64,000 bases of DNA, from IMG/VR virus record IMGVR_UViG_3300033553_000478, positions 1 through 64,000 of that record. The stretch is one strand, 5' to 3'. A program made the position numbers and the translations under genes. The notes beneath the pieces are model-generated. The model was not told where the DNA came from and ran no database searches. It worked only from the letters and a program-made list of their open reading frames with translations. Below are positions 3,269-44,709 of the stretch, in pieces (the first letter of the stretch is position 1; every line of letters begins with the position of its first letter). Origin of the DNA: a virus.

Positions 3269-3940
3269 TCATTGTGCTGTAAGTATTTTATAAAACTTTT
3301 CAGTTTGTATAATTCTTTCTTTTAAGTGATTAGGTTTCCCTTTGGAATACGCATTTCCTAAATTCACTGCCCTGGAAACAGCAAGTATTGTAGAAGCGTT
3401 AACCCGGTCGCAATGCTTCCAGATGTTATTTGCATTGAAGAAAAACAAAGCGCTTTCAAAATAATATTTGGTAATGATCAAGTTTGGATTTTCTACAACA
3501 CAAGGATCATTTACAAATTCAGCAAAAGCTTCAAAGTTTCCTCTACCGGTTAAGTGCAATGGTCCGTGGCCACGAAATTTATAACCATCACCTGGTTCAG
3601 TATTTCCAAGATTTATTCTTCCCCATTCGCCACCATAAATAATATTTCCGATAGCTACCTGATCAGCTCTTTGCTTTGAAGTGCGGCCATATTTTACACA
3701 GTCAGCTTCACTTATCCTATGGCGACCGAAAGTCGCCATTAAACCCTCTACACTATAATTCAGGTTTTCTTTTGATTTGGTAAACTGAGAAGATTCGTGA
3801 GCACACTGTCCAACATAATGAGCTAAATGCTCCTTTTTAGGAATATTTAGGACCACCTTCATTTTATCTAAGGTGAACCGTCCAAGATCTCCATCAGGAC
3901 TCAAGCCATTTACTTTTTGAAAATCTATTAGCTTGCTCAT
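3269..3940 (-). CDS. Endolysin, GH19 chitinase/lysozyme-like
   Basis: The glycoside hydrolase family 19 signature is visible: CAHESSQFTKSKENLNY with the general-acid Glu of AHES (about residue 49), then IYGGEWGRINLGNTEPGDG, then GYKFRGHGPLHLTGRGNF. The N-terminal 25 residues (FQKVNGLSPDGDLGRFTLD) resemble a truncated peptidoglycan-binding repeat. Phage members cleave cell-wall glycan at the end of infection. The usual RGRGLIQLTGR motif is altered here to RGHGPLHLTGR. No signal peptide, so export depends on a holin. It sits between a holin candidate and the spanin-like gene. Confidence 0.88.
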   Translation of the reverse strand: MSKLIDFQKVNGLSPDGDLGRFTLDKMKVVLNIPKKEHLAHYVGQCAHESSQFTKSKENLNYSVEGLMATFGRHRISEADCVKYGRTSKQRADQVAIGNIIYGGEWGRINLGNTEPGDGYKFRGHGPLHLTGRGNFEAFAEFVNDPCVVENPNLIITKYYFESALFFFNANNIWKHCDRVNASTILAVSRAVNLGNAYSKGKPNHLKERIIQTEKFYKILTAQ

Positions 3941-24697: not shown

Positions 24698-24948
24698 TAG
24701 ATAGATTTGTATTTAATTTTCTTATTTCCTTTAATGTGCTTGACAAAGTACCCGCTTGAGCTGGGTGCATCGTACATAGTTTTCCATTGTCCTGCAGATA
24801 CAGGAATATAACTGTAAACACTATCATTCGTTTTGAAATGAACATATAATGTTTGTGCTGCAGGGTTGTAAACTACCTCTTCAATAAGAGAGCTTTCAGG
24901 TGTCTTTTTACGTGGCCAGTCAGGGTTCACGGGTACTTTATGGTCCAT
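24697..24948 (-). CDS. KTSC domain protein
   Basis: The 83-aa protein matches the KTSC domain pattern: SSLIEEVVYNPAAQTLYVHF near the N-terminus, a Tyr-x-Tyr strand (VYSYIPVSAGQW), then SSSGYFVKHIKG, with the Lys, Thr/Ser and Cys-site region at the end. KTSC proteins are small beta domains, sometimes next to nucleic-acid enzymes; function unknown. Start codon overlaps the GroEL stop. Confidence 0.75.
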   Translation of the reverse strand: MDHKVPVNPDWPRKKTPESSLIEEVVYNPAAQTLYVHFKTNDSVYSYIPVSAGQWKTMYDAPSSSGYFVKHIKGNKKIKYKSI

Positions 24949-26597
24949 TAATAACCAGGGGGATTTTGAAATTTCTTATATACTTCAGGATCTACGATAA
25001 CACATTCCGTAGTAAGTAGCATTCCGGCTATAGAGGCAGCACTTTCCAGCGCAACTCTTGTAACCTTTACAGGATCCATAATGCCGGAAGCGATCATATC
25101 ATCGCAAACTTTCCCGGTTCTGGCATCATAACCAGCACTGAAATTATCTGCAATTTTCCTGAAATCCATTTCCTCTAAATCTACTCCAACATTTTCAATG
25201 ATCATTCCGAAAGGTTCGCGTATAGCTCTAAGAACAATATTTGCTCCATACATTTTACTGGCATTTCTTTCTTTGGTGTCAAACTCAATAGTCGAAAGAG
25301 TTAATAATGCAGCTCCACCTCCAGGAATAATCCCTTCTTCATTTGCGGACTTTACCGCGTACAAAGCATCCTGAATCCTTCCTTGTTTCTCGATATATTC
25401 AGAATCGGAACGAGCGCCTATATTGATATAAGCAATTCCGTCTGATATCCTGGAGATACGAGTCTGCAATTGTGACTTCTCAAACTGCTGAGTAGTATTT
25501 TTCAAAACTTCCCGTAAATGATCAGCACGATCGGCCATTCTTTTCTGAATAACCTCATCCTCTTCATCGGAAACTCCAAAGGCACCTTTGATAGAAGTTA
25601 CCTGTTCCTGAACAGTAACTTCTTCAGACTGGGGAAGGTAATTGAAAATCTCTGCCGTAGGAAGATCTTCAAACTGTGTTCCTTCATTTTCAATGAAAGG
25701 ATCCTTACCCAATACAGCTCCTAAATCCCGAAGTAATTCCTCAGTTTCATTTCCGAAACCTGGGGCCCTTACTACACAACATTTGAAACCAGCTCTGGTA
25801 ACATTGTAGATAAGCATATCCTGAATGAGATCGTCAATGCCTGGGCAAATGATCAGTAAAGCTTTTTGAGTTCTACCACATTCCATTATCAGATGTTCCA
25901 AATTTGGCTCCATTTTGGAAAGCTTCTTATTGGTCATAAACACATAAGGCTCTTCCAAAATACAAGTTTCCTCTTTGTGGTTGTTTATGTAATATCTGGA
26001 ACGGTACCCGGTAGGTAAGGTCATACCTTCGATACTTGTCATATGCGTGACATAATCATTCGACCGCTTAATGTTTACAATTCCTTGTCTTCCTGCTACC
26101 TTAAAAGCTCTGGTCACAATATCTGCAGCTTCCTCATCATTGTTGGAAGCAACCAGGGCAACCTTTTTGAGCATTTCCAAATCATTCTCAACCGGCTTTG
26201 CTTTTTCAAGAAGCTGTTGAACGATTAATTCTACCGCTTCGTCGATACCCTTCTTAATATCGAGTAGGTTCAGTTCCTCAGGGAAATTTAATCCCTGTTG
26301 CAATATAGCTTCAGCAATAACAGTGGCGGTGGTAGTTCCATCTCCGGCTTTATTGTCGGTATTGTTGGCGATATCCTGCAGCGACTCAATGGCCACCATC
26401 TCAATAGGATCATCAGACCAAACCTGTCCGGCAACCGTTACTCCATCCTTGGTTGAGAATGGGCGGCTTTCCTGTCCGTTTCTAATTAAAACATTACGGC
26501 CAGATGGTCCTAATGTTACTTTTACTGCTCGGGCTATTTTATTGGCGCCCGCCAATAGGTTTTGGCGGGCCTCCAATGAATACATTGTTTTTTTCAT
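24948..26597 (-). CDS. groL: Phage-encoded GroEL chaperonin (HSP60)
   Basis: A near full-length group I chaperonin of 549 aa. Hallmarks: VKVTLGPSGRNVLI at 26-39, KDGVTVA near 50, GDGTTTAT at 85-92 containing the catalytic Asp, the APGFGN motif in the apical domain, EEGIIPGGGAAL around 418-428, and GIMDPVKVTRVALESAAS near the end. It lacks the usual C-terminal GGM repeat, ending instead in KKFQNPPGY. It should fold phage proteins such as the capsid. It is followed by KTSC and packaging genes; a GroES-like gene lies 0.9 kb upstream in the same transcript. Confidence 0.95.
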   Translation of the reverse strand: MKKTMYSLEARQNLLAGANKIARAVKVTLGPSGRNVLIRNGQESRPFSTKDGVTVAGQVWSDDPIEMVAIESLQDIANNTDNKAGDGTTTATVIAEAILQQGLNFPEELNLLDIKKGIDEAVELIVQQLLEKAKPVENDLEMLKKVALVASNNDEEAADIVTRAFKVAGRQGIVNIKRSNDYVTHMTSIEGMTLPTGYRSRYYINNHKEETCILEEPYVFMTNKKLSKMEPNLEHLIMECGRTQKALLIICPGIDDLIQDMLIYNVTRAGFKCCVVRAPGFGNETEELLRDLGAVLGKDPFIENEGTQFEDLPTAEIFNYLPQSEEVTVQEQVTSIKGAFGVSDEEDEVIQKRMADRADHLREVLKNTTQQFEKSQLQTRISRISDGIAYINIGARSDSEYIEKQGRIQDALYAVKSANEEGIIPGGGAALLTLSTIEFDTKERNASKMYGANIVLRAIREPFGMIIENVGVDLEEMDFRKIADNFSAGYDARTGKVCDDMIASGIMDPVKVTRVALESAASIAGMLLTTECVIVDPEVYKKFQNPPGY

Positions 26598-27814: not shown

Positions 27815-28273
27815 TTATTGGTTATAATTAAATTCAATAATAGTCCAATCATCAGCAATCATATCTGTCTGAGAAGCCAGCCAACCATTTACTATGGTGT
27901 TATCTGCAGCTTTCATGCAGATATAAGCTGTAACCTTTACCTCTGTTTCCTCGCTTCCGTGAACGAAAAACTCTTTCACTTTCCTTGGAATAGAAACAGC
28001 TCTTTCAACTATTGACATTGGAAGAGTATCTTCTGGCCGAATAAACAGGAACATATTTTTCCCATTCCATCCAGATCTTTTAACCATACAGCCATCTTTT
28101 AAAGCTGCAATAGCTTCACCGAAATTACCCCGGCCAAGGTGTAATGATCCGTAAGGACCAGGAGAAGCTTGAGAGTCTAAATGATCAATAGCTTCTTGAA
28201 CTAAATCAAGGGCGTTACCTCCATCGCCCGGAGATCTTAATGCGTGTCGAATGTCTAACAGTCTTTGTTTCAT
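27815..28273 (-). CDS. DUF2829/Tad2-like protein, candidate Thoeris antagonist
   Basis: Residues 49-150 match the DUF2829 (Thoeris anti-defence 2) pattern: NFGEAIAALKDGCMVKRSGW then NGKNMFLFI, and a C-terminal NGWLASQTDMIADDW. Characterised Tad2 proteins form tetramers that sequester the gcADPR signal made by Thoeris. Many DUF2829 phage proteins are untested, so activity is inference. It has an extra helical N-terminus of about 45 residues (MKQRLLDIRHALRSPGDGG). It overlaps the exoribonuclease gene by 4 bp. Confidence 0.75.
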   Translation of the reverse strand: MKQRLLDIRHALRSPGDGGNALDLVQEAIDHLDSQASPGPYGSLHLGRGNFGEAIAALKDGCMVKRSGWNGKNMFLFIRPEDTLPMSIVERAVSIPRKVKEFFVHGSEETEVKVTAYICMKAADNTIVNGWLASQTDMIADDWTIIEFNYNQ

Positions 28274-29070
28274 AATGTTGAAAATTGAAGTTTATTTAAA
28301 AATTTATGTAAAGCTTTATTCCACCTGGCATCAGCCAGCGCGTTATGTTCATCTTTTTGTTGGGGATAATCAGGTAATGTTTTTACCCATTTATGGTGAT
28401 CCTCCCGGGATATTGGAAAAGTTCCATTTTCGTGCATTCTCGCTCTTTCTGGCATTTCAATATGCCACATAGTAGCTTGAAGGGTAATTTCATCTTGCAG
28501 CTGCTTCAAGTCCAAGCAATACATAGGAAAACCCTTAGGCAGATCCATCATTGTACCGAATAACTGGCAGAAAACAACCCAATCATAATCGGCATAATAC
28601 GCCCAGAACTCAGGTTCAGCAGGTATCTTAATCTCTTCCGGTGGATTCACAAACATCAACACTTCTGTAGCAATTTTCTTATTGCTTTTCCCGTAAAAAT
28701 TGATCAATAATTTCAGGTGATATTTAGTAAAACCTGCACCAGCTGTACCAAAATACCTTCTAACAAAATTTTGATCGTGAATTGATTCTGCTTTAAACTC
28801 CCGAAATATTGGAAGCAGTACATTCTTCCGGATCCATTTGTTTTTCCAGGCGTGGTCCAGATTAAAATCTTTGGAAACAGCATAATACTCTCTGGAAGAT
28901 TTATACTTATCAGAAGTATGTCCCTCCCGGGTACTAAACAGAGGCGCTTCCTCTGAAACAATCCCTATACTTATCAGATCAATAGTTGGTTTGGTCTTGC
29001 CATAAGTGTAACCAAAAAACTTTTTAGGTTGGGGCCCCTCAATAAATTCAGTGTCTAAATAATATCTCAT
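28270..29070 (-). CDS. DEDD-family 3'-5' exoribonuclease (Rv2179c-like)
   Basis: The 266-aa protein has the exonuclease motifs: DTEF at 6-9 (Asp and Glu metal ligands), YADYDW near 160 (second Asp), and DEHNALADARW near 243 (His and Asp of the DEDDh type). The opening YLDTEFIE followed by IDLISIGIV is characteristic of the Rv2179c-like exoribonuclease family. It may degrade host RNA or trim tRNA. An insertion of about 60 residues follows the first motif. Coupled to the Tad2-like gene. Confidence 0.8.
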   Translation of the reverse strand: MRYYLDTEFIEGPQPKKFFGYTYGKTKPTIDLISIGIVSEEAPLFSTREGHTSDKYKSSREYYAVSKDFNLDHAWKNKWIRKNVLLPIFREFKAESIHDQNFVRRYFGTAGAGFTKYHLKLLINFYGKSNKKIATEVLMFVNPPEEIKIPAEPEFWAYYADYDWVVFCQLFGTMMDLPKGFPMYCLDLKQLQDEITLQATMWHIEMPERARMHENGTFPISREDHHKWVKTLPDYPQQKDEHNALADARWNKALHKFLNKLQFSTL

Positions 29071-30333: not shown

Positions 30334-30335
30334 TG

Positions 30336-30440
30336 TGCAGAGGGCAGGGATCGAACCTACACGATAAATTTGTCTATTGCTACCTATCAAGCCAACCGTT
30401 GCGACCGGTACACTGCGGCTTCCACTTTCGCCACCTCTGC
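30336..30440 (-). tRNA. Atypical class II-like tRNA (Leu-type D arm), oversized
   Basis: On the minus strand the acceptor stem is perfect (GCAGAGG with CCTCTGC, discriminator A), the T arm is GTAGG-TTCGATC-CCTGC, and the D arm (GGTGGCGAAAGTGGAAGCCGC) closely resembles bacterial tRNA-Leu. The part between them is 53 nt, longer than anticodon plus variable arm usually need. The best anticodon stem is ACCG-GTCGCAA-CGGT, which would give anticodon CGC, unexpected with a Leu-type body. A GATA/TATC pair may close the long variable arm. CCA is not encoded. It may be an unusual tRNA, a tRNA with an insert, or a pseudo-tRNA. Confidence 0.6.
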
Positions 30441-42756: not shown

Positions 42757-44709
42757 ATGGAACAAATGACCAAAGAGCAGTATATGGAAATGCTTAACTG
42801 GGATCAATCCCTTTACAAAATCATATCTGGTGAGGAAGCCGAACCTTTGTTAAAAATCGGTGGCCACCAGAATTATGTTTATGCTGTTTCGCCTAAAGGT
42901 GAGAAAGCATTTGGTAAAGGATCCAAGGTTGTCAAGATTGATTGGGCAGAAAAGCATTCAGCCCCAGCCGTAGAGCAAACTCCTGCTGCAGCAATTCCAC
43001 CGCCACCGGCAAACATACCACCCGCCCCGGCCGCTGCAAGCATACCACCTCCACCAGCTACGGAAGCTGCTATTCCACCGCCTCCGGCACAGGAAGAAAA
43101 GCCAGTAGAAGATAACTCCGTTTATGAATTGAGATTGGCGCAGCTGAAATCAATTGGATGGAATCAGGTAAGTGATAATGTCCTTGAACGTAAAGACGGT
43201 AAGAGGGTAAGTAATGATTACCTGAAGATGATGAATGATGATGCATTTATGGATCTTATGAAAGCTCCCCTGGAAACTCCTAAAGAGGAACCAGTGAAGG
43301 AAGAAGTTAAACAGGCTGAGCCTGCTTGGGAACCATACATAAAAACCCGAGTGGCTAATTTAATTAGCCAAGGCTGGAAAGCCGATCAGAACGGCAATTC
43401 CGTTGTTATTTCCCCTGAAGGGAAATACTACGGATTTATGGAGATAGGTGAGCTCAGCAATAAAGATTACACCGATCTTATCAAAAAGCCGGAAGTTCCT
43501 GCAGAGATCAAAGAGATCGCAGATGCCTCTCCGAATGTGCATATAGTTACTATGCCTAAGGATGATGAACCTACGGCTGAAGATATCGCGAAAGAGAAAG
43601 CTAATAAGCTTTTACAAATTCGCAGAATTGCACTTTCAGCACTTGGTTTTACCAATGCTCCTGGAGCTGCTATGTGGCAATCTGATATCAATCACAACGT
43701 GAGCGATAAAGAAGTGATCGCAATGGGAGAAGATGAATTCAAAGACTTCCTGAAACTTATGGATGGTAAAATAGTTACCGTCAAAGCTCAGAAAGCCAGT
43801 GAAGATCGTCAGGCCAAAAATGAAGAAATCCGGAAGCAGAAAGAAGCTGAACAGTCTAATCCTGATGTAGGAGTTGAAATAGCAAATGAAGCTGCTGAGG
43901 TTGCCGAGAAGTCAATAAATGAAATGGCAAATGAAACCGAAGGTATGTCAGCTGTAGAATTGGATGAACACGATGTTCGTAAACTTGCTATTGAGCAAGC
44001 TCAGAAACGTGATGATGCCGAGATCGATAAGTATGAGGCTGAGAAGAAAATGGATGAATTGATGGAGAAGCTTCAAAAAGAGAATGATGCTCACAAGGAG
44101 CAATTCGAGAAATGGAAGCAAGATCTCATTGCTGAAACTGAAGCGGAGAAAAAGAAAATCCGTGAAGAGTATCAGCAAAAAGAATCTCCAATGACCACCG
44201 GAGATGCTGGTGGCTTCTTCGGTTTGCTTGCAGAGCTGGGTTTTGGGCAGCTGAATTTATCAGTGACAAAGTTGGAAAGCAATAAGTTCAGCGTTATCGT
44301 GAAGCCTCAAAACTTCTCAGGCGATCCAGCGTTGGATGAAATTCGTCCAATGACTTTAAGCGGTTCTCCTGCAGAATTAGATGAAGGTTTCTTCGCTGCT
44401 ATCAGCCAGCCATTACAGAAAGTCCACGGTGTTATGAGTAACGCCCAGGCTGTGATCGCTGATCTGGAAGAGAAAGCCAAGAAAACCAAGGCTGCAGAGG
44501 AAGAGAAAAAGAAAGTCACCAAAGCTGTAGAAAAAGCTAAGAAGCATCATGATGATAAAGATTTTGATGCAAAAAGTGATGCCTCTCTGAAAACTGCAAA
44601 GAAGAATTGGGATGCTGTACTGGCATTGGATCCTGGTAATAAGGATGCAAAGGCCGGACTTGATAAGCTGGAGAAGCAAATCAAGGAGAATGCTGAAACT
44701 CTTCTTTAA
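42757..44709 (+). CDS. PRTRC system protein E, with long proline-rich and coiled-coil N-terminus
   Basis: 650 aa, far longer than a usual protein E. Residues about 484-590 carry the E domain: FFGLLAELGFGQLNLSVTKL, FSVIVKPQN, then MTLSGSPAELDEGFFAAISQ. Before it come a linker with IPPPP repeats (about 75-118), repeated small domains each near SIGWNQVSDNVLERKDGKRV, and a charged coiled coil (380-480). After it come a Lys/Glu helix and a TPR-like tail (ALDPGNKDAKAGLDKLEKQ). E is a core component of the ParB-related ThiF-related cassette; its biochemical role is unknown. Confidence 0.8.
   Translation: MEQMTKEQYMEMLNWDQSLYKIISGEEAEPLLKIGGHQNYVYAVSPKGEKAFGKGSKVVKIDWAEKHSAPAVEQTPAAAIPPPPANIPPAPAAASIPPPPATEAAIPPPPAQEEKPVEDNSVYELRLAQLKSIGWNQVSDNVLERKDGKRVSNDYLKMMNDDAFMDLMKAPLETPKEEPVKEEVKQAEPAWEPYIKTRVANLISQGWKADQNGNSVVISPEGKYYGFMEIGELSNKDYTDLIKKPEVPAEIKEIADASPNVHIVTMPKDDEPTAEDIAKEKANKLLQIRRIALSALGFTNAPGAAMWQSDINHNVSDKEVIAMGEDEFKDFLKLMDGKIVTVKAQKASEDRQAKNEEIRKQKEAEQSNPDVGVEIANEAAEVAEKSINEMANETEGMSAVELDEHDVRKLAIEQAQKRDDAEIDKYEAEKKMDELMEKLQKENDAHKEQFEKWKQDLIAETEAEKKKIREEYQQKESPMTTGDAGGFFGLLAELGFGQLNLSVTKLESNKFSVIVKPQNFSGDPALDEIRPMTLSGSPAELDEGFFAAISQPLQKVHGVMSNAQAVIADLEEKAKKTKAAEEEKKKVTKAVEKAKKHHDDKDFDAKSDASLKTAKKNWDAVLALDPGNKDAKAGLDKLEKQIKENAETLL

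What the first reader, a model, noticed from the sequence alone, without database searches (positions are those of the whole stretch)
27815..28273. Tad2-like (DUF2829) protein: candidate Thoeris antagonist with an N-terminal extension
The domain pattern matches DUF2829, the family of Tad2 sponges that bind gcADPR. An extra 45-residue helical N-terminus is unusual compared with the short Tad2 proteins and may alter assembly or ligand choice.
Basis: partly seen in the sequence, partly recalled or inferred. Interest (0 to 1): 0.7.

Follow-up and report, generated by a model that had tools for sequence, protein, structure and literature searches.

The report
Phage Tad2 sponge with N-terminal extension
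A gene in a crAss-like phage encodes a protein of the Tad2/AcrIIA7 family, which most likely soaks up nucleotide alarm signals that infected bacteria use to trigger defence; the family is known, and only its own N-terminal helices and one changed residue in a signal-binding loop are new.

Summary
Window 27815-28273 (minus strand) is a 152-aa gene. Residues 50-146 match Pfam PF11195 Tad2-like (E 2e-22), and its closest solved relatives are AcrIIA7/HgmTad2 and SptTad2. Every family-invariant residue is kept. It also has the long insertion that the literature links to cyclic-dinucleotide binding. The host is an 82.8-kb crAss-like phage record.

A Tad2-type nucleotide sponge is the best reading, but the target need not be Thoeris gcADPR alone: relatives bind cADPR isomers, His-ADPR or cGG. 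The extension is real (one start codon, gene-like codon usage), yet extensions are common in this family, and a solved AcrIIA7 chain has 46 extra N-terminal residues. Here it has two parts: an orphan helical pair (1-35) and a tail, SPGPxGxLHxGRG (37-49), found in IMG/VR only directly before Tad2 domains.

A sister phage carries a 62%-identical Tad2 core with no extension, so the core probably works alone. Both share a rare Lys-to-Val change in the insertion, which may change ligand choice. Other close relatives lack the gene, so it is accessory. No ligand or activity could be tested. Verdict: a new member of a known kind, of modest interest.

The parts
27815..28273 (-). tad2-like gene, 152 aa, whole ORF including the stop codon
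27833..28126 (-). Tad2 core domain, residues 50-147 (PF11195 match 50-146)
   Evidence: predicted fold matches HgmTad2/AcrIIA7 8kbj at Z 12.5
28169..28273 (-). Orphan N-terminal helical pair, residues 1-35
   Evidence: helices 2-13 and 18/21-35 predicted; no relative found
28127..28165 (-). Conserved tail SPGPYGSLHLGRG, residues 37-49
   Evidence: relatives in alignment A1; all 8 pattern hits in IMG/VR lie directly before a Tad2 domain
27911..28036 (-). Long insertion within the core (about residues 80-121), the segment linked to cyclic-dinucleotide binding in HgmTad2/SptTad2; Val93 replaces the class-conserved Lys of 'KSLP'
28270..29070 (-). Gene directly upstream, overlapping by 4 bases: DEDD-type 3'-5' exonuclease (Rv2179c-like / phage 'RNase H'); probably co-transcribed, functional link not shown
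   Evidence: PF16473 E=2.6e-7, phrog_2259 E=7e-44
24948..26597 (-). GroEL-type chaperonin downstream on the same strand; landmark for synteny

Best explanation
This is a phage signal sponge of the Tad2 family, long-insertion (AcrIIA7/HgmTad2) class. During infection it would assemble through its core, probably as the family's tetramer, and bind the small nucleotide second messengers made by host defence enzymes (cADPR-type Thoeris signals and possibly cyclic dinucleotides of CBASS). It would sequester rather than cleave them, so the effector is not switched on. The N-terminal helix pair and the SPGPxGxLHxGRG tail are accessory and not needed for the basic activity; they may pack on the tetramer or help stability. 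Shown here: family membership, intact invariant core, insertion class, predicted fold, real start codon, accessory distribution, an extension-less relative in a sister phage. Inferred: tetramer, ligand, sequestration, defence target, role of the extension.
For: PF11195 E=2e-22. PDB sequence matches to AcrIIA7 (E 5e-35 and 4e-34), SptTad2 (5e-27) and SPO1/Myroides Tad2. All 16 invariant columns of 28 aligned relatives are kept: A54 G61 R66 G68 W69 N70 G71 K72 M74 F75 W131 S134 Q135 D137 D142 W143. Many of these lie in 'GWNGK' and 'WLASQTD'; I place the published pocket loops there by inference. The predicted monomer matches ligand-bound structures 8kbk/8kbj (1',2'-cADPR, cGG), 8wjd (cGG) and 9eib (hisADPR) with Foldseek E 1e-11 to 1e-7, Z 11-12.5. 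The long-insertion clade has strong support (100/98) and holds the window protein. Review PMC12043709: Tad2 tetramer with two gcADPR pockets, and cyclic dinucleotides bound through the insertion. Sister phage L004 (terminase 66.5% identical, capsid 63% over the 205 residues aligned) has a 107-aa Tad2 starting at the core, 62% identical.
Against: No ligand, oligomer or cell assay is possible with these tools. The host and its defence systems are unknown. Val93 replaces a Lys that is kept in 27 of 28 long-insertion relatives, so cyclic-dinucleotide binding may be weakened or changed. The monomer model says nothing of assembly. Within the family, ligand choice differs from protein to protein (gcADPR, His-ADPR, cGG), so it cannot be read from homology.
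Confidence: 0.72

Rival explanations
1. The extension and the Val93 change re-tune the sponge: the tail and helices alter assembly or cover a pocket, so that this protein prefers a different messenger than HgmTad2.
For: Val93 is shared only with the sister-phage protein L004. The tail SPGPxGxLHxGRG is conserved in sequence, lies directly before the core, and is found only on Tad2 proteins in the collection searched. The tail is predicted partly as a strand (residues 44-49).
Against: The two changes are not linked: L004 has Val93 but no extension, and the tail-bearing L002 and L003 have Lys. Whether residue 93 touches ligand is not known here. The extension is predicted at moderate confidence only.
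Confidence: 0.25
2. Anti-CRISPR: like AcrIIA7, the protein inhibits Cas9 rather than, or in addition to, sequestering messengers.
For: The closest solved relative by sequence is named AcrIIA7. AcrIIA7 was reported to inhibit SpyCas9 in vitro without appearing to bind it (PMC8545432).
Against: A 2026 review lists AcrIIA7 among Acrs with conflicting reports (PMC13131331). AcrIIA7 structures carry cADPR and cGG. No Acr-associated regulator was sought or seen here.
Confidence: 0.08
3. The Tad2 fold is used here for something unrelated to defence, for example binding a nucleotide metabolite for phage replication, or the gene is a decaying remnant.
For: Pfam Tad2-like proteins are widespread (202 phage records match) and, to my knowledge, mostly untested. 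The gene sits next to an exonuclease and near the groEL gene.
Against: Every invariant residue is kept, the ORF is intact, and its codon usage is that of the phage's genes. Its patchy presence among close relatives fits an accessory counter-defence gene better than a replication gene.
Confidence: 0.12

Closest known systems
AcrIIA7 / HgmTad2 (PDB 8kbi, 8kbj, 8kbk; chain 9kzr of 158 aa)
   Same: Core 52-54% identical in structural alignment; long insertion; the same conserved blocks; also a long N-terminal region (46 residues in 9kzr). Structures with 1',2'-cADPR and cGG exist.
   Different: The N-terminal regions are not related by sequence: 9kzr's resembles that of the L014-type relatives, the window's resembles nothing found. 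'KSLP' Lys is Val93 here.
SptTad2 (PDB 8wjd, with cGG)
   Same: Long-insertion class, 48% identical over 101 aligned residues.
   Different: 101 aa, no N-terminal extension; keeps the Lys of 'KSLP'.
SPO1 Tad2 (gp34.65; PDB 8sme/8smf/8smg)
   Same: Family founder; same conserved blocks around GWNGK and SQTD.
   Different: About 90 aa, short insertion, no extension; reported not to bind 3'3'-cGAMP (PMC11722364).
ModTad2/MoTad2 of a Myroides odoratus prophage (PDB 9eib, hisADPR)
   Same: Tad2 fold, Z 11.0; its host Myroides is a member of Bacteroidota (own knowledge).
   Different: Short class; target is His-ADPR of type II Thoeris (PMC13299392).
Tad2 of sister phage contig L004 (IMGVR_UViG_3300025881_000010)
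   Same: 62% identical core, long insertion, shares Val in 'VSIP'; same gene block.
   Different: 107 aa, no helices or tail; lies directly downstream of groEL, whereas the window gene lies upstream of the two genes that precede groEL.

Membership tests
Tad2-like (PF11195) | Profile match above the curated cut-off | tested here: met
   80 bits against a cut-off of 25, residues 50-146
Tad2-like (PF11195) | Invariant core residues kept | tested here: met
   All 16 invariant columns of a 28-sequence alignment
Tad2-like (PF11195) | Tad2 fold | tested here: met
   Predicted model, core pLDDT about 90; Foldseek E 9e-12 to 8kbk, Z 12.5 to 8kbj
Tad2-like (PF11195) | Homotetramer with two messenger pockets | not testable with these tools
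   Only monomers can be predicted here
Long-insertion Tad2 class (HgmTad2/AcrIIA7, SptTad2) | Long insertion between the GWNG and SQTD blocks, clade membership | tested here: met
   59 residues between GWNG and WLASQ (counted from the sequence); 61-76 in nearly all clade members and 37-57 in nearly all other relatives; clade support 100/98
Long-insertion Tad2 class (HgmTad2/AcrIIA7, SptTad2) | Class-conserved Lys of 'KSLP' in the insertion | tested here: not met
   Val93 here and in L004; Lys in 27 of 28 class sequences. This is a sequence trend seen here, not an established defining feature, so class membership is kept
Thoeris antagonist (function) | Binds a Thoeris messenger and rescues phage from Thoeris | not testable with these tools
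   Needs biochemistry and plaque assays
Anti-CRISPR AcrIIA7 (function) | Inhibits Cas9 | not testable with these tools
   Published activity itself is contested

The most novel reading that the evidence does not exclude
The SPGPxGxLHxGRG tail is a portable accessory element of Tad2 sponges that changes assembly or ligand choice; together with the orphan helix pair and Val93 it gives this phage a sponge with a ligand profile not yet seen in the family.
Probability: 0.2. Interest if true: 0.5.

Novelty: new member of a known kind. Interest (0 to 1): 0.33.

Why it matters
It adds a Tad2 sponge to crAss-like phages, with a natural comparison that makes the role of N-terminal extensions directly testable: a sister phage carries the same core without any extension. 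The tail motif, conserved on divergent Tad2 cores and not seen elsewhere in the collection searched, is a specific lead for how these sponges are modified. The Lys-to-Val change is a single-residue test of ligand choice.

Tried and rejected
N-terminal residues 1-49 as a known domain: no match in the PDB (one chance hit to a designed protein, E 0.14), IMG/VR, phage records at E<=10 apart from two chance hits, the rest of the own record, Pfam beyond a chance hit at E 0.23, PHROGs or all fetched loci. Predicted alone, Foldseek returned no PDB chain for it; weak helical rows (Z about 3) are not informative.

A general exonuclease-Tad2 gene pair: considered because of the 4-base overlap. Among about 100 Tad2 loci only L010 carries the exonuclease, on the opposite strand; a mini Tad2-like ORF lies near another homologue in L141. 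Not enough for a system.

Mis-called start (a shorter true protein): rejected, no other start codon before codon 63, and the extension scores as coding.

Window and L004 proteins as proven orthologues: only weak tree support (83/74); kept as likely.

The main Tad2 papers that I tried by identifier are not held, so pocket residues could not be mapped one by one.

Full report
The gene. The ORF at 28273..27815 on the minus strand encodes 152 residues. Its ATG overlaps the stop codon of the upstream gene (ATGA), and no other ATG, GTG or TTG occurs before codon 63. Codon usage of the first 49 codons is that of a real gene: +11.4 bits in frame, against a maximum of 1.5 in 19 open wrong-frame stretches and a mean of 16.4 in 145 stretches of the phage's long ORFs. 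The extension is therefore very likely translated, not a mis-called start.

The core. Residues 50-146 match Pfam PF11195 (Tad2-like) at E=2e-22, two PHROG families of unknown function, and the PDB sequences of AcrIIA7/HgmTad2, SptTad2, SPO1 Tad2 and Myroides Tad2. In an alignment of 28 relatives every invariant column is kept. The predicted structure has high confidence in the core and matches the ligand-bound structures of AcrIIA7/HgmTad2 and SptTad2 best (Foldseek E about 1e-11; Z 12.5 with rmsd 2.4 over 98 residues for 8kbj).

Which class of Tad2. By insertion length and by tree the protein lies in the long-insertion clade (100/98). A review reports that Tad2 is a tetramer with two gcADPR pockets and that Tad2 binds cyclic dinucleotides through a long insertion between strands beta2 and beta5 (PMC12043709). 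SPO1 Tad2, with a short insertion, was reported not to bind 3'3'-cGAMP (PMC11722364), and a Myroides prophage Tad2 targets His-ADPR (PMC13299392). The likely cargo of the window protein is thus a cADPR-type signal, perhaps also cyclic dinucleotides; it cannot be fixed by homology. One caution: the insertion carries 'VSIP' where 27 of 28 long-insertion sequences have Lys in 'KSLP'; the only other Val is in L004, from a sister phage.

The extension. It has two parts. Residues 1-35 are predicted as two helices (moderate confidence), and no relative was found in any search. Residues 37-49, SPGPYGSLHLGRG, recur in relatives such as L002, L003, L019, L031 and, in a variant form, L037, where they lie at the very N-terminus. 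A degenerate DNA pattern for this tail found eight stretches in the viral contig collection, and in all eight the tail sits directly before a Tad2 domain, including a divergent one in L145/L146. On the tree the tail needs four changes and lies in both long- and short-insertion clades, so it has been lost several times or moved between Tad2 genes.

Is an extension unusual? No. Of 88 distinct relatives, 22 have at least 15 extra residues and 8 at least 30, even when the nearest Met is taken as the start (the sample is biased towards the window protein). Several unrelated kinds exist: a type seen in Prevotella-associated loci, which resembles the N-terminus of the solved 158-aa AcrIIA7 chain 9kzr; a 'YIGTK...ISWSP' type; and a second Tad2-like domain (L011).

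Where it sits. The window is part of an 82,833-base virus record. The gene at 15912-17585 matches the crassvirus major capsid family (E=1.7e-10), and portal and terminase families follow, so this is a crAss-like phage. The tad2 gene lies on the strand of the structural genes, after an exonuclease gene and before two uncharacterised genes and a groEL-type gene. In close relatives G003 (capsid 87% identical) and G004 (74%) the same slot is held by other genes, among them a DNA-methylase-like ORF in G004 (my reading of the sequence), and no Tad2 domain was detected in the records. The more distant sister L004 has a Tad2 in the same gene block but between groEL and the KTSC-domain gene. The gene is therefore accessory and has been gained, lost or moved within this phage group, as expected for counter-defence.

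Mechanism. The best-supported account is stoichiometric sequestration of host nucleotide messengers, with the core sufficient and the extension accessory (confidence 0.72 for the sponge reading as a whole). Family, fold, conserved core and distribution are shown here; tetramer, ligand, sequestration and the defence system targeted are inferred. The AcrIIA7 name raises an anti-CRISPR alternative, but reports on that activity conflict.

Verdict. The protein is a new member of a known kind, with an orphan N-terminal helix pair, a family-specific tail and one notable substitution that are worth a bench test.

Noticed in passing
window 30335-30440, minus strand: tRNA-like element at the early/late junction: perfect acceptor stem (GCAGAGG/CCTCTGC) and T-arm, a predicted long variable arm, but a disrupted anticodon stem; followed by a terminator-like hairpin. 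ARAGORN reports it as a gene only when introns are allowed, Rfam not at E<=1, and it is absent from the fetched relatives.
   Followed up: partly
L020, L021, L022, L023, L024, L028, L085, L086, L087 (e.g. L023:7605-8336): In loci that include Prevotella genome contigs, the Tad2 protein is continuous with an upstream hydrophobic, membrane-protein-like segment of about 85 residues in one open frame, in two divergent versions: possibly a membrane-tethered Tad2.
   Followed up: no
L011:7476-8039, L084:5788-6351, L110:2854-3369: Proteins with what looks like a second, divergent Tad2-like domain N-terminal to the canonical one (tandem Tad2).
   Followed up: no
window 24948-26597: Phage-encoded GroEL-type chaperonin (phrog_5725, E=6e-123), conserved in the phage relatives G001, G003, G004, G005 and L004.
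   Followed up: partly
L141:2923-3132 and 3339-3834: A 69-aa partial Tad2-like ORF close to a homologue of the window's exonuclease in an unrelated phage contig.
   Followed up: partly
window 42757-44709: 650-aa protein with a C-terminal PRTRC system protein E domain (E=4e-23), unusual in a phage as far as I know.
   Followed up: no
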